Part shown: piece after piece, positions 1,195 to 58,164 of the stretch
How the letters are laid out: every line of letters starts with the position of its first letter
How positions within the stretch are numbered: position 1 is the first letter of the stretch
Assembly (NCBI RefSeq): GCF_017875325.1
Contig: NZ_JAGGMN010000001.1
Coordinates: 2,004,140 to 2,068,139 of the forward strand
Origin: Methanofollis sp. W23
GTDB lineage: Archaea > Halobacteriota > Methanomicrobia > Methanomicrobiales > Methanofollaceae
DNA length: 64,000 nt
Reading direction: 5' to 3'
Made by a program: the position numbers and the translations under genes
Notes under the pieces: model-generated
Told to the model about the DNA's origin: nothing
Databases searched by the model: none
What the model saw: the letters and a program-made list of their open reading frames with translations, nothing else

Positions 1195-1428
1195 GGCTTT
1201 GTAGAAACCCTCACTTCCTCTCGGTGCAAGGGTGACTCAATCGCCTTCCCACACAATCACGCCGGGGGCGCGGCTCCCCCGGACCCCCAGGATCACGATG
1301 GATCCGGGAAGGCACACACAATGACCATGAAGAGGGGATTGCCGTCCACGACCTATCGTGTGGCGGGGGGTTCGGGGGGCGGCCAGCCCCCCGGCGAAGA
1401 GAACCATCAAGAGGGTTTCTACAGAGCC
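1195..1428 (+). mobile_element. MITE-like element, copy A1, with perfect 8-bp TSD
   Basis: A 234-bp non-coding element bounded by 18-bp imperfect inverted repeats. The left end reads GGCTTTGTAGAAACCCTC (1195-1212); the right end reads GAGGGTTTCTACAGAGCC (1411-1428). The octamer TCTGAAAG lies directly before (1187-1194) and directly after (1429-1436) the element, a perfect target-site duplication. Inside is a second palindrome running from GCCTTCCC to GGGAAGGC with a G/C-rich core. The target octamer contains the TGA stop of the upstream ATPase gene. No transposase is encoded, so movement must be in trans. Confidence 0.85.
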
Positions 1429-10362: not shown

Positions 10363-10600
10363 TGCTCTGTAAAAACCCTCGCCAATTCTCGGTACGAGCG
10401 CTATCCACCCGCCTTCCCCGATCTTCACGCCAGGGGCTCCGCCCCCGAGACCCCCGGGATGAAGATAGGGCTGGGAAGGCACAATCAGCGACCATAAAGA
10501 GAGTATTGCCATCCTCCGCCTATCGCTCGCGCGGGTGGGTCCGGGGGGCGGCCAAGCCCCCCACCAGAGAGAAAGAGATCAAGAGAATCTCTACAGGGCC
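10363..10600 (+). mobile_element. MITE-like element, copy A3
   Basis: The left end TGCTCTGTAAAAACCCTC and right end GAGAATCTCTACAGGGCC are imperfect inverted copies of the family terminus. The internal palindrome GCCTTCCC to GGGAAGGC is present, followed by the ACCATAAAGAGAGTATTGCC block shared with other copies. Flanks (CTTTTTTT and CCTTTTTC) are a possible decayed 8-bp duplication. It sits 12 bp after the gfcR stop. Confidence 0.7.
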
Positions 10601-14252: not shown

Positions 14253-15991
14253 GTGTTCCCCACACGCGTGGGGATGAACCGATCTCGACAGTAGCACAGG
14301 CCCTGGGCCTTAAGTGTTCCCCACACGCGTGGGGATGAACCGGACCCGGCCCTGCTTGCAGGACGGGAGGATCAGTGTTCCCCACACGCGTGGGGATGAA
14401 CCGAGGATATTGTCCTCTGCTGCCTCTACTCCGGCGTGTTCCCCACACGCGTGGGGATGAACCGTTGGGAGTGACATTCTTCCCATCGCCAAGAGCGTGT
14501 TCCCCACACGCGTGGGGATGAACCGGCAGACCTCCGCGCTGAGGGGATGGTGGTCCGGTGTTCCCCACACGCGTGGGGATGAACCGCGCCGGGAGATCCG
14601 GGAGGCTGGCAGCCTCGAGTGTTCCCCACACGCGTGGGGATGAACCGGCATATGAATCTGCTCGCCGATGTTCGCATCAGTGTTCCCCACACGCGTGGGG
14701 ATGAACCGTCTACGTCGATGTCGTCGTCCTGGGCGGCCGCGTGTTCCCCACACGCGTGGGGATGAACCGGCGTCTTCGTTCTGTATTTCGGTCTGAAATT
14801 TGTGTTCCCCACACGCGTGGGGATGAACCGACGCAGAATCGGGCGCTATTATTACCAACTCCGTGTTCCCCACACGCGTGGGGATGAACCGGTCATTAAT
14901 TTGATTAAAGTTGCGGGAATTTAGTGTTCCCCACACGCGTGGGGATGAACCGTTAGGGAGCAGATTTGGATCTACAGTCATCGAGTGTTCCCCACACGCG
15001 TGGGGATGAACCTCAAGATCCGCAATTACCCCGAAGAGGCAATCCGTGTTCCCCACACGCGTGGGGATGAACCGATCATCACCACATCATCACCAGGTCA
15101 TCGATGGTGTTCCCCACACGCGTGGGGATGAACCGAAAATTGAAATTGAGGCGAGAGAGGAGGCTTCGTGTTCCCCACACGCGTGGGGATGAACCGAACA
15201 CTCTCTCTCTCTGGTGCGGGGCACCGACGTGTTCCCCACACGCGTGGGGATGAACCTTAGCGCGGTGAGCCGCGCCCAAGTCGTCACCCGTGTTCCCCAC
15301 ACGCGTGGGGATGAACCGGATGACAGACAATCCCTACCTGGGGAGATACGGTGTTCCCCACACGCGTGGGGATGAACCGCGATCAGGTACTATCAGAAAC
15401 GGACAATTGGCGTGTTCCCCACACGCGTGGGGATGAACCGCAGGGCTATCTGTGGCGCCTGCGGCCCTCCTCCGTGTTCCCCACACGCGTGGGGATGAAC
15501 CGTTCTATCAGCGGGGCAGGGAGCGAGATACAGCGTGTTCCCCACACGCGTGGGGATGAACCGGGTATCTTCCCTGCAAAGGCGAAGACCCATGAGTGTT
15601 CCCCACACGCGTGGGGATGAACCGATCCCTACGTCGATCCGTGGTCGGATCTGTTCGTGTTCCCCACACGCGTGGGGATGAACCGAATTTCTGGCAGTTG
15701 CCGGGGCCTCCGGGCCTGTGTTCCCCACACGCGTGGGGATGAACCGATGCAGCTAATCCGCGACGTCTGCGCCAAGGAGTGTTCCCCACACGCGTGGGGA
15801 TGAACCGAACAGCGCCCCCGGGTACTCGTCAATCTCCAGAGTGTTCCCCACACGCGTGGGGATGAACCGTCCTGCCCCCACCGATCCCAGGCGGCCTGAA
15901 GGTGTTCCCCACACGCGTGGGGATGAACCGTCTGCGTCCCGTCGGTTCTGTGACGCTGTGGAGTGTTCCCCACACGCGTGGGGATGAGTCA
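14253..15991 (+). CRISPR. Type I-E CRISPR array 1 (29 repeats, 28 spacers)
   Basis: 29-nt repeats begin GTGTTCCCCACAC and end GTGGGGATGAACCG, with a CCCCAC/GTGGGG hairpin, spaced every 61 bp (32-nt spacers). Two spacers are 33 nt (before the repeats at 15474 and 15841). The final repeat (15963-15991) is degenerate, ending GATGAGTCA, which marks the distal end. Two internal repeats (14985 and 15229) end in T instead of G. The array is on the same strand as the cas operon. The long open frames on its minus strand are translations of the repeats, not genes. Confidence 0.99.
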
Positions 15992-16180: not shown

Positions 16181-18856
16181 ATGGAGCACCAGACCGACCG
16201 CCCATACTATCGCTACTGGGCAAAGACACCCAATGAAGAGGAATCTGCTCCTATCGCACACCTCCTCCCATACCACGCCCTCGACGTCGCGGCGGTCGGG
16301 CAGGTCCTGCTCCAGAACGACCCCATTCTCAGGGCGAGGTTCGCCCCCCTCGGGATGGAGGACGAAGACCTCAACGCTTTCCTCTCATTTCTGCTTGCCA
16401 CCCACGACATCGGCAAGTTCTCCACCCCTGCCTTCCAGGCGATGGCCCCCGAGGTCGTACGACATCTCAGAGACGAGGAGGTCCACCTCACCTCAGACGC
16501 CCACCACTCCACCCTCGGCTACACCCTCTGGACCGAATATCTCTGGGATGCAACGACCGACGCCGGGTGTTTTGGTTTTGATGAGCCGATCGACATCGAC
16601 GACTGGCAGTACTTCCCCTTTCTCAGGGCGGTCTGCGGCCACCACGGCACCCCCCCCGAGAACTTCTTCGGCACCGGTACTTTCTCTGCCGAGGACCGCG
16701 AGGCCGCCCTCGCCTTTGTCGAGGACTGTGCCACCCTCTTCTTCTCAGGGCGTGCGGTACCCCTCCAGCCCGACAAAGATCTCGTCAAAGATGCAAAGAC
16801 GCTCTCCTGGATCCTGGCCGGGCTCTGTGTCCTTGCCGACTGGATCGGATCAGACAGGACATACTTCGGCTACCGCGACACCCCGCTCCCGCTCATCGAG
16901 TACTGGGCGACCGCCCTGGAGCAGGCCGACAGGGCCGTCAGAGCGAAGGGCGCGGTGCCGACCACACCCTCCACCAACGAAGGACTGGCCGCACTCTTCC
17001 CTGAGATCTTCCCGGCCCACACCCCCACCGACCTCCAGACCCACCTTGCCACCCGCCCACTCGGGTCAGGCCCTCACCTCTTCATCATCGAAGACGCCAC
17101 CGGGAGTGGGAAGACCGAGGCGGCGGTCAGCCTTGCCCACCGTCTGATGGCACGCGGCGAGGGCGAAGGGATCTATATCGCCCTCCCGACCATGGCCACG
17201 GCCAACGCGATGTACAGCCGGATCGCCGAGGCCGCCGACCACCTTTTTGTGGACGACACCTACTCTCTCGTCCTCGCCCACTCGGCCAGCCACCTGTACC
17301 AGACCATGCAGACATACCTGGACGGAACCACACCTGGAGAGAAAAAGCCCGCAAGTCCAGGATCTGTCTGGCTCTCAGACCGGCGCAAGAAGGCCCTGCT
17401 CGCACAGGTCGGGGTCGGGACCATCGACCAGGCCCTCCTCGGCGTCCTCCCGGTGCGCCACCAGTCGCTCAGGCTCCTTGGCCTTGCCAGGAACATCCTG
17501 GTCGTCGATGAGGTCCATGCCTGCGACCCCTACATGCACGAACTTCTCAGAAAACTCCTGGAGTTCCAGGCCAGTTTCGGTGGGAGTGCCATTCTCCTCT
17601 CGGCCACGCTCCCTGAACGGCAACGCAGAGACCTTGCCGGAAGTTTTGCCCGCGGGGCCGGGTGGCCTGCACCAGGCCTCAGCAAAAAAGACTGCTACCC
17701 CCTCGTCACCCACCTCTCCGGGGTCGGCACGGAAGAACAGGTCTGCAAGGCAAACGGTGAGAGACGGGTGGCGGTCAGCCTCACCTGTTCGGTGACAGAG
17801 GCCGAAACCGCGATCGTCGCCGCCGCAGACGCGGGCCGGTGCGCCTGCTGGGTGAGGAACACCGTCGACGACGCCATCGATGCCTACCTCCGGCTCAAAG
17901 CACGCCTGCCGCCCGGCACCGTCCACCTCTTCCATGCCAGGTTTGCCCTTGGGGACCGGCTCAGGATCGAGAAAGAGGCCCTCGACCGCTTCGGAAAGAG
18001 CACGGTGCAGCCGCGGGCAGGCCACGTGCTCATCGCCACGCAGGTCGTCGAACAGTCCCTCGACCTCGACTTCGACCTCATGGTCACCGACCTCGCTCCC
18101 ATCGACCGCCTCATCCAGCGGGCCGGCCGGATCCATAGGCACGACCGCGGCGAACGAGGAGAGGCACGGATCATCGTCCTCTCCCCACCGCCGGTCGACG
18201 ACCCCGGACGAGAATGGTACCGCACCTTCTTCAGAGGCGGAGCGGCGGTCTACCCCGACCATGCCAGACTCTGGCTGACCGCCCGACTCCTTGCAGAACG
18301 CGGGGAGATCGTCATCCCCCGCGACGCCCGGCCTCTCATCGAGGGGGTCTATGGGGAGGAGAGCGAGCAGGCCATCCCTGAAGGGCTCAGAAGAACAGCC
18401 GCCGAGGTGCAGGGCGCCGAGCATGCGGACGCCTCGTTCGCCCTCGAAAATGCCCTGAAGATCAGGACGGCATACTCCGCGACCGGAGGGCTCTGGGCCA
18501 GCGACACCAGGACCCCCACTCGCCTGGGCGACCCGACCGTCACCCTCCGCCTCGCCCGGTGGGACGGCACGAGGCTCTCCCCATGGGCAGATGGGCCAGA
18601 CCCCACAGCTGCCTGGGACCTCAGCCAGATAAGCGTTCGGGCGAGTTGGGTCGGGGGTCAGGCACCCCTCGACCCCACCCTCGACGAGGCCGTCGTCAGG
18701 GCCACAGAGACGATGCCCGATCGGGGGCGGACCGTCGTGATCGTTCCTCTCTCGGCACACGATGCGGTATGGGAAGGCCCTGCACTCGACGGCGCTGAAA
18801 ATGCGATCCTCATCCGCTATTCTGAGGAGATCGGGCTCGTGAACAGGAAAGTATGA
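16181..18856 (+). CDS. cas3: Cas3 nuclease-helicase, type I-E
   Basis: 891 residues. HD nuclease motifs: H32, H75-D76 (THDIGKF) and H154-H155 (GHHGTPP). SF2 helicase: Walker A ATGSGKTE at 306-313, DEVH at 443-446, then SATLPE, and motif VI-like LIQRAGRIHR. Cas3 is recruited by Cascade after R-loop formation and degrades the displaced DNA strand. All key residues are present, so interference should be functional. It is the first gene of the operon; a 64-bp gap separates it from cse1. Length fits the I-E family. Confidence 0.97.
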   Translation: MEHQTDRPYYRYWAKTPNEEESAPIAHLLPYHALDVAAVGQVLLQNDPILRARFAPLGMEDEDLNAFLSFLLATHDIGKFSTPAFQAMAPEVVRHLRDEEVHLTSDAHHSTLGYTLWTEYLWDATTDAGCFGFDEPIDIDDWQYFPFLRAVCGHHGTPPENFFGTGTFSAEDREAALAFVEDCATLFFSGRAVPLQPDKDLVKDAKTLSWILAGLCVLADWIGSDRTYFGYRDTPLPLIEYWATALEQADRAVRAKGAVPTTPSTNEGLAALFPEIFPAHTPTDLQTHLATRPLGSGPHLFIIEDATGSGKTEAAVSLAHRLMARGEGEGIYIALPTMATANAMYSRIAEAADHLFVDDTYSLVLAHSASHLYQTMQTYLDGTTPGEKKPASPGSVWLSDRRKKALLAQVGVGTIDQALLGVLPVRHQSLRLLGLARNILVVDEVHACDPYMHELLRKLLEFQASFGGSAILLSATLPERQRRDLAGSFARGAGWPAPGLSKKDCYPLVTHLSGVGTEEQVCKANGERRVAVSLTCSVTEAETAIVAAADAGRCACWVRNTVDDAIDAYLRLKARLPPGTVHLFHARFALGDRLRIEKEALDRFGKSTVQPRAGHVLIATQVVEQSLDLDFDLMVTDLAPIDRLIQRAGRIHRHDRGERGEARIIVLSPPPVDDPGREWYRTFFRGGAAVYPDHARLWLTARLLAERGEIVIPRDARPLIEGVYGEESEQAIPEGLRRTAAEVQGAEHADASFALENALKIRTAYSATGGLWASDTRTPTRLGDPTVTLRLARWDGTRLSPWADGPDPTAAWDLSQISVRASWVGGQAPLDPTLDEAVVRATETMPDRGRTVVIVPLSAHDAVWEGPALDGAENAILIRYSEEIGLVNRKV

Positions 18857-18920
18857 ACATGAAACACATGGTAGCCATGCGCAGAAAACGATGTGAAATG
18901 ATACAGACCAGGAGGCGCTC

Positions 18921-20525
18921 ATGCCCCTCAACCTGATCGCCGATCCATGGATCCCGGTCAGAAGAAAAGACGGCGAGACCAACAGCATTGCACCCTGGGA
19001 AATCACCAGTCGGCACGACGATAACCCGGTCATCTCAGTCACCTCGCCACGAGCAGACTTCGACGGTGCGATCACGCAGTTTATCATTGGCCTGTGCCAG
19101 ACCGCCCTCCCGCCTGAGAAGTGCACCGAGAAACAGGCCCTCCTCACACCTCTGACACCTGACGACCTCAGAGAGGCCTTCATCCCCCTTGCCGCGGCCT
19201 TCAACCTTGACGGCGACGGCCCCTGGTTCATGCAAGAACGCAACCTCGATCAGAAGAAGTCCTGGCAGATCGATAGCCTCCTCATCGGTATGCCTGAGGA
19301 CGAGAAGGTCAAGGACAACACAGACTTCTTCCAGAAGCGAGACACCATCACCGGGCTCTGCCCGGTCTGTGCCGCCGCCGCCCTCTTTACTCTCCAGACC
19401 AATGCGCCTGGCGGGGGCAGGGGTCACATGACCTCGGTACGGGGCGGAGGGCCGATGACCACTCTCATCCTCGGCGAGACCCTCTGGCAGACGGTCTGGG
19501 CCAATGTCGTCGACAGAGACCAGAGCCACGAGCCTCCCAGGGCCGACGACCCCGCCCTCTTTCCCTGGATGGGGGAGGTCAGGGTCAGCAGGGACGGGAC
19601 AAAGACCACTCCCAGAGACGTCCATCCCGACCAGGTCTACTGGGCGATGCCGAGAAGGATCCTCCTCGACTTCGAGGGGGGGAAGCCGGGGACCTGCGAC
19701 CTCTGCGGTCAGGAGACCGACCGGCTCATCACGAGGTACTGGGCGCAGCCCTACGGAGTGAAATATGCCGGGTGGACCCATCCCCTCAGCCCGTATTACA
19801 AGAAAAGCAAAAGCAGTCCAGAACTCCTCCCGGTCCACCCGCAACCAGGCGGGATCACCTATCTCAACTGGCTCGGCCTGGTCATCAACGACCGGGCCGA
19901 TGGAAAGCAGGTCGCAGAGAACGTCACCCGATTCCCTGACCGCACCAGAGGCAGGAGCGTCGCGGCCGTCTTCGGGCGCATGCCGCGGCTCTGGGCCTTT
20001 GGATACGATATGGACAACAAGAAGGCTAGGTGCTGGTACCAGGGCACGCTCCCGATCATCACCGTCGACGAAGAGTGGAAAGACGGTTTCGAGAACCTCG
20101 CCGCACAGATGGTGAGGGCCGCTGCCGACATGGCGCAGAACGTCCAGTGGTGCATCAAACTCGCCCTCTACGACAAACCCGGCGACGCCAAGGGTGACTT
20201 TTCGGTGATCAATGCAAGGTTCTACCAAGCGACCGAGAAAGAGTTCTACCAGATGCTCGAACACGAGGCAATACCGACCCTGAACAATGGCGGCGACACT
20301 CTTGCACTCAGGCAGGGATGGCTCAAGACCCTCCAGGCCGAGGGGCAGACGCTCTTCGAAGAGTATTCGCAGATCGACCTCATCGACGAGATCGATACAC
20401 AAAGGGCCATCACCGCCTGGCGGGCGCTGAAGAACCCCTTCTCCAAATTGAACAAAAAGATCAGGAAAGATCTCGACCTTCCTGACCTGAAAAAACAGAA
20501 AAACGCAGAAAAACGAGGTGAATAA
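18921..20525 (+). CDS. casA: Cse1 (CasA/Cas8e), Cascade large subunit
   Basis: 534 residues starting MPLNLIADPWIPV, the typical N-terminus of Cse1. It carries two Cys pairs (CPVC and CDLC) that could hold zinc, as in some Cse1 proteins. Cse1 reads the PAM and starts DNA unwinding. The GGAGG-like AGGAGG site ends about 6 bases before the ATG. The gene is followed 5 bp later by cse2. Confidence 0.95.
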   Translation: MPLNLIADPWIPVRRKDGETNSIAPWEITSRHDDNPVISVTSPRADFDGAITQFIIGLCQTALPPEKCTEKQALLTPLTPDDLREAFIPLAAAFNLDGDGPWFMQERNLDQKKSWQIDSLLIGMPEDEKVKDNTDFFQKRDTITGLCPVCAAAALFTLQTNAPGGGRGHMTSVRGGGPMTTLILGETLWQTVWANVVDRDQSHEPPRADDPALFPWMGEVRVSRDGTKTTPRDVHPDQVYWAMPRRILLDFEGGKPGTCDLCGQETDRLITRYWAQPYGVKYAGWTHPLSPYYKKSKSSPELLPVHPQPGGITYLNWLGLVINDRADGKQVAENVTRFPDRTRGRSVAAVFGRMPRLWAFGYDMDNKKARCWYQGTLPIITVDEEWKDGFENLAAQMVRAAADMAQNVQWCIKLALYDKPGDAKGDFSVINARFYQATEKEFYQMLEHEAIPTLNNGGDTLALRQGWLKTLQAEGQTLFEEYSQIDLIDEIDTQRAITAWRALKNPFSKLNKKIRKDLDLPDLKKQKNAEKRGE

Positions 20526-20530
20526 AAACC

Positions 20531-21037
20531 ATGGCAGATGCACCCGAGCAGGCGCAGGGCCAGACCGCCGGGCTCAACGCGGCGGTTCTTGGATGGTGGA
20601 GAGAGTTGCGAGATGAACGCGGGGCCAGGGCCGAACTACGGCGGTGCCACACCCCCACCGAGGTCGCCTTTGTCCCGGCTTACTACCGGCTGAAGGCGGC
20701 AGTGCCCAGGCTCGACGACCGGAAACTTGCGGCCGCCGCCGGCGTCCTCGCCCACGTGGACGAACCGGCAATGGGCGCCAGGATCGCCGAACAGTTTGCC
20801 CGCCCAAAGGACGGGGGGACCATGCCGCGAGTGAGCGAGGTACGGTTCCGCCGTCTCCTCAGGGTGGAGGACGATGACTACGAGGAACTCTACCCGATGA
20901 TGATCAGGTTGGTCCGCCAGGTCGACCGCACGGCGAACATCCCCGACCTTTTCTGGGGGCTCTACTCCTGGAATGCCCAGACCAAGAGGCACTGGGCCGA
21001 GGCGTATTACACGAACGTACCGTCGAAGAAAGAATGA
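20531..21037 (+). CDS. casB: Cse2 (CasB), Cascade small subunit
   Basis: A 168-residue helical, basic protein with the family-typical FVPAYYRLKAAVP segment and C-terminal LFWGLYSWNAQTKRHWAEAYY. Two copies line the Cascade belly and stabilise the displaced strand. An AGGTGAAT ribosome site overlaps the cse1 stop. Confidence 0.93.
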   Translation: MADAPEQAQGQTAGLNAAVLGWWRELRDERGARAELRRCHTPTEVAFVPAYYRLKAAVPRLDDRKLAAAAGVLAHVDEPAMGARIAEQFARPKDGGTMPRVSEVRFRRLLRVEDDDYEELYPMMIRLVRQVDRTANIPDLFWGLYSWNAQTKRHWAEAYYTNVPSKKE

Positions 21038-21049
21038 GGTGAAGAAAAA

Positions 21050-22198
21050 ATGTCTGAATTTATCCAACTGCACATGCTTGTATCGTACCCCCCGTCAAAC
21101 CTGAACCGCGACGATCTCGGGAAACCAAAGACCGCCAGGATGGGCGGGGCCCAGCGGCTCAGAGTCTCCTCACAGAGCCTGAAGCGGGCCTGGCGAGAAT
21201 CCGAGATCTTCCAGGAGGCCTTCGACGGCCACCTCGGGATCAGGACCAAGGAGATGGGCTGGCAGGTCTACCGCGCCCTGAAGAGTGGCCAGGGACTGGC
21301 CGACGTCCTCGCAGAAAATGAGAGTGCGCCGGTCCGCCCTGCCATCGAAGAGAAGAAGGCCGTCGCCTGGGCGCAGCAGATCGCCGGGCGGTTTGGGAAA
21401 CTGAAAAAACCCAAGGATTCAAAGGACGACGACGAGAAGGTCGACCCCGAGAAGCAAAAGAAAGAGTCGCTCTGTGTCGAACAGATGGTGCACTTCAGCC
21501 CTGCCGAGATCGCCGCCATCGACGACCTCCTCGGCCGCCTGGCAGAGGGCGGGAAGAAACCTGAGGAAAAAGATCTCGAACTGCTCAGGGCCGAGCGGAC
21601 CGGGGTGGACATCGCCATGTTCGGCCGGATGCTTGCCGCCTCCCCGGCCTTCAACTGCGACGCCGCCGTGCAGGTCGCCCACGCCATCACCGTGCACAAG
21701 GTGGCCGTGGAAGACGACTACTTCACGGCCGTCGACGACCTCAACCACAGGGATGAGGACAGCGGAGCGGGCCATGTCGGGCAGGCCGAGTTTGCCGCCG
21801 GGCTCTTCTACGCCTACCTCTGTGTCAACCGCGACCTTCTCGCCGAGAACCTGGACGGCGACGAGGAACTGACCGACCGGGGGGTCGAAGCCCTGGTGGA
21901 GGCGGCGGCCAAGGTCGGGCCGAAGGGCAAGCAGAACAGTTTTGCCTCACGGGCCTATGCCTCCTACATCCTGGCTGAGCGGGGGAGTGAACAGCCCAGA
22001 TCGCTCTCGGTGGCCTTCCTCAAACCGGTCGAAGGCGACGACTACCTGACCGCCGCGGTCGACGAACTCAGGACGACCAGGCAGAACATGGAGAAGGTCT
22101 ACGGGGCATGTGCCGATGGGTGCGTGGAGATGAACGCCGCGACCGGTGAGGGCTCGCTCGACGAGGTTCTTGCCTTTGTCACTGGTGACCATGCCTGA
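21050..22198 (+). CDS. cas7e: Cas7e (Cse4/CasC), Cascade backbone
   Basis: 382 residues. The N-terminal FIQLHMLVSYPPSNLNRDDLGKPKTARMGGAQRLRVSSQSLKRAWR is the conserved Cas7e start; six copies coat the crRNA. A lysine/aspartate-rich linker at about 120-145 (KPKDSKDDDEKVDPEKQKK) may be an insertion relative to the E. coli protein. AGGTGAAG precedes the ATG. It overlaps cas5e by 8 bp. Confidence 0.95.
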   Translation: MSEFIQLHMLVSYPPSNLNRDDLGKPKTARMGGAQRLRVSSQSLKRAWRESEIFQEAFDGHLGIRTKEMGWQVYRALKSGQGLADVLAENESAPVRPAIEEKKAVAWAQQIAGRFGKLKKPKDSKDDDEKVDPEKQKKESLCVEQMVHFSPAEIAAIDDLLGRLAEGGKKPEEKDLELLRAERTGVDIAMFGRMLAASPAFNCDAAVQVAHAITVHKVAVEDDYFTAVDDLNHRDEDSGAGHVGQAEFAAGLFYAYLCVNRDLLAENLDGDEELTDRGVEALVEAAAKVGPKGKQNSFASRAYASYILAERGSEQPRSLSVAFLKPVEGDDYLTAAVDELRTTRQNMEKVYGACADGCVEMNAATGEGSLDEVLAFVTGDHA

Positions 22199-22946
22199 AT
22201 TTCTGATCGTCCGGCTCTACGGCCCGCTGGCCTCGTGGGGCGGGATCGCCGTCGGGCAGTATCGTCCGGCCGAGAGCCACCCGTCCTGGTCAGGCGTCCT
22301 GGGCCTGGTGGCGGCGGCCCTGGGGATCCGGCGGGAGGACGTGGCAGGGCAGGCGGCACTCAGGGAGAGTTATCATATGGCTACCCTGGTCCATACGGAG
22401 GGGACGCTCCTGCGCGACTACCACACCACTCAGGTCCCGTCCGCGACGGTCAAGAAGCGGGCCTGGCCCTTTGCCACACGACGCGAGGAGTTGAGTGTGC
22501 CGCGGGACCATCTCAACACCATCCTTTCAAGCCGCGAGTATTACTGCGACACCCTCGCCACGGTCGCGCTCTGGCCGATGGTCGACGATCCCCCATACTC
22601 GCTCGCCGAGATCGCGGAAGCGCTCAGGCATCCGGCCTTTGTACCGTACCTCGGGCGGAAGTCCTGTCCGCTCGCCCTCCCGCTCCTGCCGCAGGTGGTC
22701 GAGGGCGCCGACCTCTATGAGGCCTTCAGCGCCGTCAGGTTCCCTGACCAGGAGATACTCGCCGACATCCCAGGGCGGGGCGATTCGGGAACGCTCTTCT
22801 GGGACAGCGAGGGAGAGACCGGGTTTGAGAGCGAAAACACCTACACGGCCCCACGGCGCGACGTGCCGCTGGACCGGATGACCTGGCAATTTGCAGAGCG
22901 GGACGAACACCGGGCGCAGGTCCTGGTCCCGGAGGGCGTGCGATGA
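22191..22946 (+). CDS. cas5e: Cas5e (CasD)
   Basis: 251 residues from the ATG at 22191 (MPEFLIVRLYGPLASWG), a start that matches the family and overlaps cas7e by 8 bp; the open frame from 22146 is an extension into cas7e. Cas5e caps the 5' handle of the crRNA. The family glycine-rich C-terminal and RDYHT motifs are visible. It overlaps cas6e by 4 bp. Confidence 0.95.
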   Translation: MPEFLIVRLYGPLASWGGIAVGQYRPAESHPSWSGVLGLVAAALGIRREDVAGQAALRESYHMATLVHTEGTLLRDYHTTQVPSATVKKRAWPFATRREELSVPRDHLNTILSSREYYCDTLATVALWPMVDDPPYSLAEIAEALRHPAFVPYLGRKSCPLALPLLPQVVEGADLYEAFSAVRFPDQEILADIPGRGDSGTLFWDSEGETGFESENTYTAPRRDVPLDRMTWQFAERDEHRAQVLVPEGVR

Positions 22947-23614
22947 GCGGACACACCTTCTACCGGATCCACCTCAAGGACGGGGCCGGGCAGGACCCGG
23001 CCTTCTGGCGGAGGGTCAGGAACCCCTACCAGGTCCACAAAATGGTCTGGCGGATCTTTTCGGACGGCTCCCACAAGGACCGCGACTTCATCTACCGCCT
23101 CGAGATGCAGGAGCACACCCCGGTGATCTATGCAGTCTCGACGGCCGACCGGGTGGACCTGGACGGGATCTGGAGGGTCGACGCAAAGGACTACCACCCG
23201 GCCCTCAGAAGGGGGGACCGGTTGGGGTTCAATCTCAGGGCCAATCCGGTCCGGACAAAGCGGGACGAAGAGGGGCGTCAGCACCGGCATGACGTGGTGA
23301 TGGACGCAAAGTACGCGATGGAGACGAGAGACAATATCGAGGTGGACCTGGTGCAGCAGGAAGGGTTTGCCTGGTTGGCCTCCAGAGGTGAGAGACTTGG
23401 GTTCAGCGTCGAGGAAGGTGCGGTCAGGGTCGACGGCTACCGCCAGCACCGGTTCAGGAAGCCGCGGTCAGGCCGAAGGGTGACGATCAGCACCATCGAT
23501 TTCACAGGCGCGTTGACGGTCACCGACCCCGACCTCTTCAAGGAGGCGCTCTACACCGGGGTGGGGCCGGCGAAGAGTTTTGGCTGTGGGCTCCTCCTGG
23601 TCAGGCGGGTCTGA
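22943..23614 (+). CDS. cas6e: Cas6e (CasE) crRNA endoribonuclease
   Basis: 223 residues. The segment NPYQVHKMVW places a His at 32 where the E. coli enzyme has its catalytic His20. The C-terminal glycine-rich loop GVGPAKSFGCGLLLVRR is the RAMP signature. Cas6e cuts the pre-crRNA at the base of each repeat hairpin; the repeats here have a matching 6-bp stem. ATGA overlap with cas5e. Confidence 0.95.
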   Translation: MSGHTFYRIHLKDGAGQDPAFWRRVRNPYQVHKMVWRIFSDGSHKDRDFIYRLEMQEHTPVIYAVSTADRVDLDGIWRVDAKDYHPALRRGDRLGFNLRANPVRTKRDEEGRQHRHDVVMDAKYAMETRDNIEVDLVQQEGFAWLASRGERLGFSVEEGAVRVDGYRQHRFRKPRSGRRVTISTIDFTGALTVTDPDLFKEALYTGVGPAKSFGCGLLLVRRV

Positions 23615-23623
23615 GGTGGTCGG

Positions 23624-24819
<1,196 letters not shown>

Positions 24820-31355: not shown

Positions 31356-32491
31356 AATGTGCTGGGGAGCACTCCTGAATGTCGAGAGATTCCTGACCAC
31401 TTCCTCCGCACCCGAGCAGGCGATGAACACACGCCTCTGTCCTCTCCACCTACCGGTGCCGCGGGATGAAACTGGAGAGAAAGAAGGAGAAAAACCCGGA
31501 AAGAATTCTCCCAATGGTCCTCTGTGACTTAAAGTTGACCTGAACCTGACCTCGAAGACCTCGTGATGGTCTTCTCAAGTTCGCTATACTCAGACACCTA
31601 AATTCTGTGAATCCATGATTATCAGCTTTGTAGAGACCCTCACCAATTCCTGGCATGAGTGTACCTCACCCGCCTTCCCATCTCTTCGGGCCTGGGGCAG
31701 CGCTCCCGGCGCGAGGGTATGGGAAGGCGTGATGACCAGGCACGCCGTCCTCATTGCAGAATCTCTCCCTTCGTCTCGTCCCGGGGGGCGGAGATGAAAC
31801 TGTATCTTCAAGATGCCATGTCGGAAAGAGAGGGATCCGCACACGCGCTGAAGCGGTGCTCAAAAAATTTTCATCGCATATGCGTGAGCCCGAGGTTCAT
31901 GCTAAACTACCATGAAAATGATCCTGACGATCAACCCGGGAGGTTTGTATGAGTGTTTGAACTTGCCATATCATGTTGGAGCCGACACGCAGAGGATAGA
32001 AAATTCCTCTGATGGATCGGCGACATGGTGCTCGACTTCGATCTGCTCCTCGAACAAAATGGATGAGGGTCAGGAATCGATCCAGTCCTGATATGATATT
32101 TTCATCCTGAGGATATCCCAAAACTCTCCGGCCCTCATTCTCACCGATGAAGAGCGATGGATGACAATGAAGAGATCCCAGATTTTTCATCGCGCACCCA
32201 TGCATTCGTCGCCTTCCCCCTCGCCCCCGCCGGGGGCTCTGCCCCCGGACCCCCGGGACGGCGATGGAGCTGGGAAGGCAGAGAAAAGATCATGAAGATT
32301 GGACGCAATCCTCCGCCACTCTTCATCGGCGGGGGGTCAGGGGGGTGCAACCCCACGGTCGAGGAGTGGGTGTAGAATTTCTAGAAGCAAGCACTTCAGT
32401 TCAAGGAGATCTTCAACCCTGGAGAGTTTTGGGATATGCTCCCTGTGTACGTGAGACCTGCTCGAACCCAAAAAAAAGTATCGGCCTCCAC
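31356..32491. repeat. 1.1-kb gene-free gap filled with dispersed repeats
   Basis: About 31623-31800 is a partial A element (left end GCTTTGTAGAGACCCTCACC, internal GCCTTCCC to GGGAAGGC palindrome, right end lost). About 31866-31950 belongs to the second family (TTTTCATCGCATATGCGTGA). About 32103-32440 belongs to the third family: GATATCCCAAAACTCTC at its left, an A-type palindrome with CCGGGGGCTCTGCCCCCGGA in the middle, and GAGAGTTTTGGGATATGC at its right, so its ends are inverted. No gene seen. Confidence 0.6.
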
Positions 32492-35446: not shown

Positions 35447-35613
35447 CAGACTCTTCTCCACACCATATTCCCCTGGAAACCGTTTCCGCCGCCAGCGCGG
35501 AAGAAAAGCACGGGCGACCGGTCAATAGATCTCACCGCCGCCCGGTTCTTATAGATGACGAAATTGACGTGCGTGAATAAAATACATATAGACTTAACAC
35601 GGTGATAGGAGAG

Positions 35614-36339
35614 ATGTTTTTTCTCTGCCACCTTGCCGCCGGGGTCGTCATCGGCATTCTCCTTGCCAGGCTCTTCAGGGACCTGCGGGCCGTGCCCGCC
35701 TGCGCCTTCGGGGCGGTCGTGCCAGACCTTATCGATAAGCCGCTCGGGCACATTATCCTCGCCGATACGCTCCAGTATGGGCGGATCTATACCCATGGTC
35801 TCCTTGCCCTCTCCATCGTCACTCTCGTCGGTCTCCTCCTCTACTGGCGCTACCGCAGCGGCCTTGGCCTCGCCCTGGCCGTTGGGATCGGTTCCCACCA
35901 GGTGCTGGACGCCATGTGGCGCGAACCTGCCAACTGGCTCTATCCCTTTCTTGGACCCTTCACGACCAGCGGCACCACCTCAACCTTCCATGACCTGGTG
36001 ATGGCAGAACTCTCCGAACCCTCAGAATGGATCTTCTTCCTTTTCATCCTCTTTTTCGGGGTTCTGTTCCTGAAAAAGTCCTGGAGAAAGACCATCCTCT
36101 CCAGGTCAGGGAAGACTCTCGAGAAGTTTGCGGTCCCGGTCGGTATCCTCCTCATCATCTTTGGCGGGTTTCTCATCTTCTCAGGACTCTTCCCCCTCTC
36201 TTCGGCAGTCACCCACCTCCAGGCCCCGGCCGACATCGCCCTCTGCGGCCTGATCATCGTCGCCGCCGGGATCGTCCTCGCCTGGGCCAGGGCGCTCGTC
36301 GCCCACGATAAAACACCCCTGGCAGAGAAAGAGGAATAA
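35614..36339 (+). CDS. DUF457-like membrane-bound hydrolase-type protein
   Basis: 241 residues from the ATG at 35614 (GGAG six bases upstream; GTG at 35602 is possible). It has four or more membrane segments and the conserved polar residues of the YdjM/DUF457 group: CHLAAGV, PDLIDK, HGLL and GIGSHQVLD. That group is annotated as membrane-bound metal-dependent hydrolase on weak evidence. A TATA-like box ACATATAGAC lies at about 35583. The TAA stop is inside the target duplication of mobile copy A4. Confidence 0.7.
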   Translation: MFFLCHLAAGVVIGILLARLFRDLRAVPACAFGAVVPDLIDKPLGHIILADTLQYGRIYTHGLLALSIVTLVGLLLYWRYRSGLGLALAVGIGSHQVLDAMWREPANWLYPFLGPFTTSGTTSTFHDLVMAELSEPSEWIFFLFILFFGVLFLKKSWRKTILSRSGKTLEKFAVPVGILLIIFGGFLIFSGLFPLSSAVTHLQAPADIALCGLIIVAAGIVLAWARALVAHDKTPLAEKEE

Positions 36340-36341
36340 TC

Positions 36342-36579
36342 GGCCCTGTAGAAACCCTTACCAATTCTCGGTGCACGCGCGATTCAACCGCCTTCCCCCA
36401 TCTTCTCGCCGGGGGCGAGTGCCGCCCGCACCCCCGGGACCACGATAGGGACGGGAAGGCACAATCAATCGTCATGAAGAGCGTAATGCCGTCCACCGCC
36501 TATCGAATCGCGCGGGGGGACCGGGGGGGTGGCCACGCCCGCCGCCAGAGATACCTGTCCAGAGGATTTCTCCAGAGCC
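36342..36579 (+). mobile_element. MITE-like element, copy A4, with perfect 8-bp TSD
   Basis: 238 bp. Left end GGCCCTGTAGAAACCCTT, right end GAGGATTTCTCCAGAGCC. The octamer GAATAATC flanks it on both sides (36334-36341 and 36580-36587), and the left copy contains the TAA stop of the preceding gene. The same internal palindrome and GTCATGAAGAGCGTAATGCC block as copy A1. No coding capacity. Confidence 0.88.
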
Positions 36580-36587
36580 GAATAATC

Positions 36588-37088
36588 ACCTCTGGAGAAT
36601 CCGGCACGAACCCCCTGCTCAGGCATATGAGATGAACATGATCATGGGTCTCCGGGATGTGTGGATCCGTGCTCCCCCTTCAAGAGCAGGACTCCACACA
36701 GAAACACCGCCGCAGTGCCGCCCCCACGATGGAGGGGGCGACAGGAATGCAGAGGGCACATCTTAAGAGACGACCTTCAGGATCAGTTCCATGGAGCATA
36801 TCCCAAAACTCTCTTTGAGTGAATATCTCCTCGAACTGAAGTGTATCCTTCCAGAAATTCTACACCCACTCCTCCACCGTGGCGGGGGGGTGCACCTCCT
36901 GGTCCCCCCTCGATTGGTCGATGACGGACCCAGTTCTAATCTCCCATCACGCCTTTCTGGCCGCCCCCAGCGGTCTGGAACAGCGCCCCAGGCGAGACGA
37001 GAGAGGGAGGGCAATTCTTCTGACCCATGCCCCGGAGATGTGGGGGTTCCTACAGGGCCGAAGAATGACTCAAGACCCGAAAAGAGAG
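36588..37088. repeat. Gene-free gap with second- and third-family repeats
   Basis: About 36600-36700 matches the second family (GGCATATGAGATGAACATG). About 36790-36880 is a third-family end (GAGCATATCCCAAAACTCTC, then CTTCCAGAAATTCTACACCC). No gene is convincing. Confidence 0.5.
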
Positions 37089-38702
37089 TTATCGCTCCTT
37101 CCTGAATGCAAAGAGCACTCCGGCCATGAGCAGCGCCGCCCCTCCGCCTGCCACACTCAGCCATGGCATGCGGCCCGAGGAGGGAGGGACGTCAGTCGAC
37201 AGGGCCGGGGTCGTCATCTCGGGAGAAGGTGTCTCCATGGGGGTTTCCTCCGAGGGAGGACCGGCAAAGACTGCGAAGGTGGTGAAGTGCGTGACACTCG
37301 CGACGACCTGGCGGTGCGACCGGTCGACCCCTGTCCTGACCTCTTCCCAGTCTCCACTCTCAGCGCAGTACCACCTGACCACGAACTCCTCGCCAGGGCC
37401 GCAGGTCTCCCACTCCTCGTCCGTGAGGGTGAAGCAGAGTTCCACGGCAGGGTCGAAACTTGCCCCATTCGGACCGCACTCCAGCACCGGGCCGACCTGC
37501 CTGAAGCCATCCTTGCCGGTGGGCGGGAGGGTGTCGGAAGAGACCTGCCTGATATCGATCATCTCCAGAGGCCTGCCAAAGATGTTCAAGGCCGTGCCTC
37601 CGGCATCAAGGGAGAGAGAAACATCTCGAGTCTGTAACGCCGCCGATGCCTCGACCTCACCGGCATTGCTGACGCTGAGGCGGGCGTTTGCGGCCTCTTC
37701 ATCCTCAAGAGTGCCCCTGTGAGCAGGGCGAGGGGTTGGTGAGAGGGAGACGACATCAGGAGTTTCGTCGACAGGCTCCAGAGGATCAGGGCGGGTGCTG
37801 GCGACCGTCCTGACCGCGGCAAGTCGCTGATAGACATCGTCACATGAGGCAGAGTTCAGGGCCCTGGTAAGGGTGGCCGCCGCCCCTGGCATATCATCTG
37901 GGTCAAGGTCGATCACCTCCCTGTCTGCGCCCCTGATCTGAGAGATAGTATCTCCTCCTGCTACTGGACAGACGCCATAGACCTGGTCCGCTCCAGGGTG
38001 CTGGACGATCACCATGCCCCGCCCCTCTGCAAGGTCCCGGGCACTGATGCCGGTCAGAGTGTACGCAAATATGCCGCTCCTTGGTACCGGCACCGTGACA
38101 CTGCGTACAGTATGGTCGCCGAAGGCCCAGAGCGTGACATTCTCCAGTCTACCGTCAGCGACACCGCTCACCCTGACATTGTCGCCCGCACTCTGGGGAT
38201 CGATCTCATCGAGTGTCACCTGAGGCAAATTAAGGACGAAAGAATAGCGGACTGTCCTGACCCCCTCGAGATTGTCCTTGTGAACAGCACCGTCTCCGTT
38301 CTCAGGAGCACTGACCGCATGCATGAGATAGTTCCCTCCGCGAGGGACGCCGCCTTTCATGGACAGGACAGAGGTGTCCCAGCGGTACGCCCATCTGTGA
38401 CTCGGCGCAACGGTGCAGAGAAGATAGTTCCCCTCAGATGCCTTGAGTGCGGGGTCATCAAGCGGGACGCCGTTGCCAAGGCCCGGGCCGGTCAGGAAGA
38501 GATAGGTCGTGTCGCTGGCGGTGTTGGTGCCAGAGATCGTGATCTCCTCGCCAAGGTAGTAGACGCCAGCGCCTTCGAGCGCGATGGTGACCTCGCCGGC
38601 ATCGCCATCATGCTCCTCAAGATCCGACGCCGTTGCCGGGAAAGAGAGGATCATGAAGCCCAGTATAACAGCAACTGAGAGTTTCAATCCATGTAAATTC
38701 AT
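37089..38702 (-). CDS. Large membrane-anchored surface protein
   Basis: 537 residues. N-terminal signal (LSVAVILGFMILSFPATAS), beta-rich repeats beginning GEVTIALEGAGVYYLGEEITISG, a Pro/Thr/Ser-rich stalk (PMETPSPEMTTPALSTDVPPSS), one C-terminal membrane helix and a short KER tail. The pattern is that of methanogen S-layer-type surface proteins, probably glycosylated. Such proteins are common in Methanomicrobiales. Ligand or role unknown. Confidence 0.75.
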   Translation of the reverse strand: MNLHGLKLSVAVILGFMILSFPATASDLEEHDGDAGEVTIALEGAGVYYLGEEITISGTNTASDTTYLFLTGPGLGNGVPLDDPALKASEGNYLLCTVAPSHRWAYRWDTSVLSMKGGVPRGGNYLMHAVSAPENGDGAVHKDNLEGVRTVRYSFVLNLPQVTLDEIDPQSAGDNVRVSGVADGRLENVTLWAFGDHTVRSVTVPVPRSGIFAYTLTGISARDLAEGRGMVIVQHPGADQVYGVCPVAGGDTISQIRGADREVIDLDPDDMPGAAATLTRALNSASCDDVYQRLAAVRTVASTRPDPLEPVDETPDVVSLSPTPRPAHRGTLEDEEAANARLSVSNAGEVEASAALQTRDVSLSLDAGGTALNIFGRPLEMIDIRQVSSDTLPPTGKDGFRQVGPVLECGPNGASFDPAVELCFTLTDEEWETCGPGEEFVVRWYCAESGDWEEVRTGVDRSHRQVVASVTHFTTFAVFAGPPSEETPMETPSPEMTTPALSTDVPPSSGRMPWLSVAGGGAALLMAGVLFAFRKER

Positions 38703-42348: not shown

Positions 42349-42933
42349 TTGCCCAGGAGGTTATCCCAGAACTCTCTTCCCTCCTCCTCATCGATGAGCA
42401 CGATGAATGAAAATGAAGAGATCCCTGCGTTTTCATCGCGCACCCATGCATTCATCGCCTCCCCGAGCATATCCCAGAACTCTCTGGGGGGAACATCTTA
42501 TCGAACCGAAACGCATCTTTCCAGAAATTTTAAACCTTCTCCTCCACCGGGGGGTGGCGCCTCTGGCACGGGTGTCCACGTAAACGTCTCCTGGTCGGTC
42601 TGCCTGAGTGAGAGGCATGGTGCAGAGGGGAGGTACGCACGACTCAAATACGGCCATATTGCCTCTGATTCCATGGGCCTGCCCTTCAATCCGGCGCCGA
42701 TATGGGCTTATTTCGAGATGGGACTATAGAGGCGTTTATTCATCCAGTGCGGTGAGGAAAACACCCTTCTCCCGCCCTTATGCAGGGCGATATTTTTGTC
42801 AGTAATGTTTTGCCCTGTTGGTGCATGCTACGCCCCTGAGAAGGGGGGATATAATGCCCAGATTATAGACGGATTTCCAGGGGTCTGAGATTGTGGGACT
42901 CGCATGCATTCCATGAGATGGAGATGAATAATG
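42349..42933. repeat. Gene-free gap with third-family repeats
   Basis: About 42349-42480 and 42470-42560 repeat GGTTATCCCAGAACTCTC, CATCGCGCACCCATGCATTC and GAGCATATCCCAGAACTCTC. The same words occur in the same order at 32.1-32.25 kb, so it is a dispersed unit. No convincing gene. Confidence 0.5.
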
Positions 42934-57915: not shown

Positions 57916-58164
57916 GGTCAGAATGCCCGACCTCAATCGCAGAACATTCATCGGCATCTCGCGCCGGGGGCGGTGCATTGAACACGGCCTCCACCGATTC
58001 CCCTGTCTTGAAAAAGAGCGACCAAGCAACAGAAAATTTTCATCAGATGTGTGTGAGGGGTGCCCTCGCGTCACACCTGATCCAACAGAGCCATTCCCAG
58101 AAAGGAGTGCTCCGATTGGGAGGGGTGTTCACGTCCCAGGGCGTCTCGATCCACGCGTGATTCA
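57916..58164. repeat. Gap with second-family fragment
   Basis: About 58029-58085 contains AAAATTTTCATCAGATGTG of the second family. Bases 57444-57808 also hold no gene I can support. Confidence 0.4.

What the first reader, a model, noticed from the sequence alone, without database searches (positions are those of the whole stretch)
36334..36587. Second copy also spans a stop codon with perfect 8-bp duplication
GAATAATC flanks copy A4 on both sides and includes the TAA of the DUF457-like gene. Two independent insertions at stop codons, plus copies 12 bp (gfcR) and 18 bp (purQ) after stops, suggest that insertion or selection favours gene 3' ends. The internal palindrome could then act as a 3' processing or termination structure.
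Basis: partly seen in the sequence, partly recalled or inferred. Interest (0 to 1): 0.75.

Follow-up and report, generated by a model that had tools for sequence, protein, structure and literature searches.

The report
Jumping-DNA relic parked after a gene
The sequence is one of several hundred short non-autonomous transposons (MITEs) in a Methanofollis archaeon; they cluster just after gene ends because their enzyme prefers A/T-rich tracts, and in this G/C-rich genome such tracts lie at stop codons and transcription terminators, so the element is a lodger there and probably not the terminator itself.

Summary
A 238-bp inverted-repeat element (36342-36579) sits between two perfect copies of GAATAATC (36334-36341, 36580-36587). 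The left copy keeps the TAA of an intact YdjM (DUF457-type) gene. It is an IS5-family-derived MITE: the same ends and 8-bp duplications occur throughout the genome, and a relative carries a full-length IS5 element with matching ends. The host genus is Methanofollis.

The proposed genome-wide test was run on about 1.4 Mb. Of 71 well-supported intergenic insertions, 17 lie within 30 bp of a stop, against 5.2 expected for uniform placement in the same gaps. Only one lies within 60 bp of a start. So gene 3' ends really are favoured. A 24-bp A/T-rich palindromic target model, trained only on insertions far from stops, predicts 16.9 near-stop insertions. Target choice therefore accounts for the fine-scale clustering; a 1.8-fold excess remains when all gaps are compared.

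Orthologous sites agree. The T-tract after gfcR is conserved in most of the genus without any element, and was hit by different elements in different species. The tract on the gene side remains after insertion, RNA covariation is absent, and sites are not conserved. A terminator or processing role for the element is not supported.

The parts
36334..36341 (.). left target-site duplication GAATAATC, containing the TAA stop (36337-36339) of the upstream gene
   Evidence: sequence; TSD logic from 77 elements with 7-8/8 matches
36342..36579 (+). MITE, 238 bp, IS5-family-derived
   Evidence: at least 40 homologous copies in own genome at 76-100% identity; alignment A1; parent IS ends
36342..36357 (+). 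left terminal inverted repeat GGCCCTGTAGAAACCC
   Evidence: TIR occurs 549 times at <=1 mismatch vs 6 for the reversed control; nearly identical to one end of the IS in G005
36564..36579 (-). right terminal inverted repeat (reverse complement GGCTCTGGAGAAATCC)
   Evidence: best conserved part between species; no covariation support as RNA
36580..36587 (.). right target-site duplication GAATAATC
36588..37059 (.). probable older, degraded element with related ends immediately downstream (TSD GAATAATC / GAAGAATG, 6/8), 29 bp from the stop of the convergent gene 37089-38702
   Evidence: repeat family D11
35602..36339 (+). intact YdjM (DUF457-type) membrane-protein gene whose stop lies in the left TSD; start codon uncertain
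   Evidence: PF04307 E 4.7e-19; orthologues in 11 of 12 genomes of the genus, own included
1195..1428 (+). sister copy, TSD TCTGAAAG, 3 bp after the stop of a KaiC-like ATPase gene; not at that site in the closest relative G001
10363..10600 (+). sister copy inserted in the T-tract 12 bp after the gfcR stop (TSD 6/8)

Best explanation
The element is a non-autonomous MITE mobilised in trans by an IS5-family DDE transposase that recognises its GGCYCTGTAGAAA ends. The transposase cuts A/T-rich, roughly palindromic targets (core GAWWWWTC with A/T-rich shoulders, about 24 bp) with an 8-bp stagger; repair gives the 8-bp duplication. In a genome of about 60% G+C such targets are scarce in genes and common at stop codons and at the T-rich tracts that terminate archaeal transcripts. 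Insertions in genes or between promoter and start are purged, while insertions just after a stop are tolerated because the gene-side duplication restores the stop or T-tract. Target preference plus purifying selection thus places copies, this one included, at gene 3' ends with no need for a beneficial function. Shown here: element, ends, duplications, parent-type IS in relatives, target preference, 3'-end bias, depletion at starts, repeated hits on one terminator tract. Inferred: that this IS5 transposase mobilised the family, and the neutral or purged fitness effects.
For: Ends: 549 TIR sites vs 6 control; 8-bp TSDs. Parent: in G005 a 1008-bp IS (L113:1444-2451) has ends GGCTCTGTAGAATTCC and GGCCCTGTAGAAACCCTTCC with TSD GAACAATC, and its transposase matches NCBIfam IS5 (NF033579, 237 bits, cut-off 140). 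Target: TSDs are 69% A/T in a 41% A/T sample, palindromic GAWWWWTC. 3'-end bias: 17 within 30 bp of a stop vs 5.2 uniform in-gap; 24-bp model trained away from stops gives 16.9. Starts: 1 within 60 bp vs about 10-11.6 expected. Terminator tract: gfcR stop plus T-tract conserved, empty in G002, G003, G004, G006, G011, occupied by different elements in own, G001 and G008. Full/empty pair after ydjM: G009 has a 274-bp element with TSD GAAAAAAA 18 bp after TGA, G008 is empty. Archaeal termination uses U-tracts (PMC8716108).
Against: Own genome holds no recognisable copy of the IS5 transposase, so the present mobiliser there is unknown and the family may be inactive (median nearest-copy identity 84%, maximum 95%). 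With all intergenic gaps as background even the 24-bp model leaves a 1.8-fold excess near stops (9.6 expected, 17 seen, P 0.013). Near stops the elements are more often in gene orientation (22:7 at TSD>=6, 24:13 at TSD>=5, p 0.10), which a symmetric target does not explain. Gene calls are from my own simple model.
Confidence: 0.83

Rival explanations
1. One reading: the element's palindrome has been co-opted as a 3' processing or termination structure, and selection keeps copies after stop codons.
For: Excess near stops remains at P 0.013 against all gaps; orientation near stops is skewed 22:7 at TSD>=6; the element can fold (MFE -101 kcal/mol, but z only -1.7).
Against: In-gap clustering is fully predicted by target sequence; no T-run in the consensus; covariation 2 of 48 pairs and an unfavourable covariation term; no terminator-like match on the + strand at this site in a bacterial-type scan; element absent at the same 3' ends in relatives, where the T-tract itself is conserved.
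Confidence: 0.07
2. Transposition is guided to gene 3' ends by something beyond DNA sequence, for example terminating RNA polymerase, exposed DNA at terminators or local supercoiling.
For: Residual 1.8-fold excess against all gaps; orientation skew near stops; repeated hits on one terminator, gfcR.
Against: Within gaps, sequence alone gives the observed counts (16.9 vs 17); many insertions sit hundreds of bp from any stop.
Confidence: 0.08
3. The repeats belong to another insertion-sequence family with 8-bp duplications (IS6/IS26 or IS1595).
For: 8-bp duplications; from memory the IS26 end GGCACTGTTGCAAA looks similar.
Against: No IS6 (PF13610) or IS1595 (PF12762) transposase in any of 12 genomes of the genus, while an IS5-family element has matching ends and an 8-bp TSD.
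Confidence: 0.02

Closest known systems
MITEs derived from IS5-family insertion sequences in methanogens (e.g. those partnered with ISMma12 and ISMac15 in Methanosarcina acetivorans, 140 and 252 bp, 24 and 12 copies; PMC3852290)
   Same: Short, non-coding, terminal inverted repeats, IS5-type partner, archaeal methanogen host.
   Different: Far more numerous here (549 TIR ends at <=1 mismatch); 8-bp duplications (listed as 3 and 0 bp there); different ends; confined to one genus in the genomes searched; frequent insertion into terminator T-tracts.
IS5-family insertion sequence with GGCYCTGTAGAA ends in Methanofollis (G005 L113:1444-2451; relative in G003 L133:1435-2441)
   Same: Ends identical over about 12-17 bp, 8-bp A/T-rich TSD.
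   Different: 1008 bp with a transposase gene; the MITE shares the ends but has no coding capacity and is found where no such IS remains (own genome).
Archaeal U-tract transcription terminators (aCPSF1-dependent; PMC8716108)
   Same: The T-tracts just after stops that serve as insertion targets look like these terminators.
   Different: They are the target, present without the element; the element itself has no such tract.

Membership tests
MITE | short element with terminal inverted repeats | tested here: met
   238 bp; 13-16 bp TIRs
MITE | flanked by target-site duplication of fixed length | tested here: met
   8 bp perfect here; 41 of 123 sampled candidates perfect, 36 more at 7/8; displaced control never above 6/8
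MITE | many dispersed copies | tested here: met
MITE | no transposase gene; shares ends with an autonomous element | tested here: met
   238 bp is too short to encode a transposase; ends match the IS in G005
MITE | shown to move in trans | not testable with these tools
   only full/empty site comparison between species
IS5 family (parent) | DDE transposase of IS5 type | tested here: met
   NF033579 at 237 bits, cut-off 140; PF01609
IS5 family (parent) | autonomous parent present in the same genome (not a defining feature of the family, but expected for an active MITE) | tested here: not met
   0 matches in own genome; full-length copies seen in G003 and G005
IS6/IS26 family | IS6-type transposase in host or genus | tested here: not met
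   PF13610: 0 of 12 genomes, controls positive
IS1595 family | ISXO2-like transposase in host or genus | tested here: not met
   PF12762: 0 of 12 genomes, control positive
structured RNA / terminator element | conserved RNA structure with compensatory changes | tested here: not met
   2 of 48 pairs with double changes, covariation term +0.62; no Rfam match at the site

The most novel reading that the evidence does not exclude
An archaeal IS5-type transposition system for which transcription terminators are the preferred landing site, perhaps helped by terminating RNA polymerase or factor-bound DNA, giving a 'safe haven' strategy that leaves the gene and its T-tract intact and inserts mostly in gene orientation.
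Probability: 0.1. Interest if true: 0.6.

Novelty: new member of a known kind. Interest (0 to 1): 0.36.

Why it matters
It explains a striking pattern (repeats welded to stop codons) without invoking a function: target chemistry plus purifying selection is enough to predict where copies sit. It documents an exceptionally large MITE population in a methanogen, with a candidate parent IS in relatives, and shows that archaeal terminator tracts can be recurrent transposition hotspots. That is a caution for anyone who reads repeats at gene ends as regulatory elements.

Tried and rejected
IS6 and IS1595 parentage: no transposase in the genus. A search for orthologues of the YdjM protein in GTDB contigs found nothing; orthologues came. 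Null models tried: uniform, 8-bp motif, A/T and homopolymer class, and extended 16-, 24- and 32-bp motifs; the 8-bp and class models leave a residual excess (P about 0.01-0.05), the 24-bp model removes it within gaps. RNA-structure reading: energy only 1.7 sd below shuffles and no covariation. Literature: no paper in the held library combined Methanofollis with MITE; searches on terminators as targets and on IS5 MITEs gave no matching description.

Full report
WHAT IS THERE. At 36342-36579 lies a 238-bp element with inverted terminal repeats GGCCCTGTAGAAACCC and GGCTCTGGAGAAATCC, bordered by perfect 8-bp copies GAATAATC. The left copy carries the TAA of ORF 35602-36339, a Pfam YdjM protein. 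The left duplication preserves the gene's end: orthologues in G004 and G005 stop at the corresponding place. One nuance: the element sits 2 bp after the stop; only the staggered cut overlapped it.

A LARGE FAMILY. A DNA search of the genome scored about 40 candidates and returned 44 matching stretches. The end motif GGCYCTGTAGAAA (at most one mismatch) occurs 549 times in 2.9 Mb against 6 for the reversed pattern. In an 844-kb sample, ends with at most two mismatches number 294 against 12 for the reversed control. The family is found in 10 of 12 genomes of the genus and none of nine genomes outside it that were searched. It is expanded in own (549 ends) and G001 (687), moderate in G005, G009 and G004 (104-187), and low or near background elsewhere. 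A core pattern scanned against GTDB contigs hit only a Methanofollis MAG, so the genus is Methanofollis; that this MAG is G001 is an inference.

TARGET-SITE DUPLICATIONS. Among 123 sampled candidate elements, 41 have perfect and 36 have 7/8 duplications. In 481 comparisons with displaced windows none exceeded 6/8. The consensus is palindromic GAWWWWTC, 69% A/T in a sample that is 41% A/T.

PARENT. IS6 and IS1595 transposases are absent from the genus. In G005 a 1008-bp element has ends GGCTCTGTAGAATTCC and GGCCCTGTAGAAACCCTTCC with TSD GAACAATC. Its transposase is IS5-family (NF033579). A degraded relative with TSD CGAAAATC is in G009. Own genome has no match to this transposase. The copies differ from their nearest sampled neighbour by a median of 16%, so the family in this genome looks old. 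Mobilisation by this IS5 transposase is an inference from shared ends and TSD length.

Genes were called with a codon model on 84 stretches (1.44 Mb: systematic 20-kb samples, the window, and 8-15-kb stretches around further copies). Of 77 elements with TSD at least 7/8, 71 fall in gaps between called genes; the others lie at stretch ends or overlap gene calls. Seventeen lie within 30 bp of a stop. Uniform placement in the same gaps expects 5.2 (P < 0.00025), and an 8-bp TSD motif 11.5 (P 0.034). One lies within 60 bp of a start, against about 10 (uniform) or 11.6 (motif) expected over all gaps. In the unbiased sample without the window or the copy-directed stretches, 13 are near stops against 3.5 and 8.0 expected.

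WHY GENE ENDS. Near-stop sites are mostly of two kinds: T-tracts just after the stop (taa|TTTTTTTTTGG, tga|ATTTTTTTTCTTTTTTTTTTG) and A/T-rich stops themselves. T-tracts are the known archaeal termination signal (PMC8716108). A 24-bp target model trained only on insertions more than 60 bp from stops predicts 16.9 near-stop insertions within the gaps; 17 are seen. With all gaps as background it predicts 9.6 (P 0.013), so some preference for particular gaps or ends may remain.

ORTHOLOGOUS SITES. The gfcR stop and its T-tract are conserved across the genus. G002, G003, G004, G006 and G011 are empty there. Own, G001 and G008 carry elements. Own and G001 elements are 72% identical, whereas the gene is 93% and the aligned right flank 88% identical, and each is closer (83-87%) to other copies. 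Independent insertion into the same tract is the simplest reading; exchange between copies is not excluded. After ydjM, G009 has its own 274-bp insertion with TSD GAAAAAAA, 18 bp past the stop, and G008 shows the empty site. The KaiC-gene copy (1195-1428) is not at that site in G001.

FUNCTION. The element has no T-run. The T-tract or stop lies between the gene and the element. Compensatory changes are found in 2 of 48 pairs. Folding is only 1.7 sd better than shuffles. Sites turn over between species. A terminator or processing role is therefore unlikely, though only RNA 3'-end mapping can settle it. One observation does not fit a symmetric target: near stops, elements lie in gene orientation 22 to 7 (TSD at least 6/8) or 24 to 13 (TSD at least 5/8, p 0.10). 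It was found after the fact, and other distance bins fluctuate in the opposite direction, so I treat it as a lead.

VERDICT. An ordinary kind of element (MITE) in an unusually large family, with a well-supported explanation for its position.

Noticed in passing
L084:7059-9056 (G000:C1:652756-654754): Two elements of the family flank a gene with two GNAT acetyltransferase domains, and the whole 2-kb unit has a perfect outer 8-bp duplication TATTTTGT: possibly a composite transposon carrying a passenger gene.
   Followed up: partly
L113:1426-2343, L133:1270-2334, L181, L196: The IS5-type transposase frame has no stop codon of its own: it runs through the terminal repeat (EFYRA) and the duplication and ends in host DNA.
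   Followed up: partly
L142:4399-4629, L151:10056-10493, L146:255-523, L093:18162-18715, window 36588-37059: Elements often sit head to tail, a new end starting directly after the right duplication of another, as if old duplications serve as targets.
   Followed up: no
elements within 60 bp of stops, own genome: Orientation skew towards gene direction (22:7 at TSD>=6; 24:13 at TSD>=5).
   Followed up: partly
window 14253-15975 and from 24919: CRISPR arrays with 61-bp period and repeat GTGTTCCCCACACGCGTGGGGATGAACCG on both sides of a gene cluster (16181-24819).
   Followed up: no
window 32155-32218 / 42401-42464 and 2340-2388 / 58006-58054: Other dispersed repeats (89% and 78% identical pairs), possibly further repeat families.
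   Followed up: no
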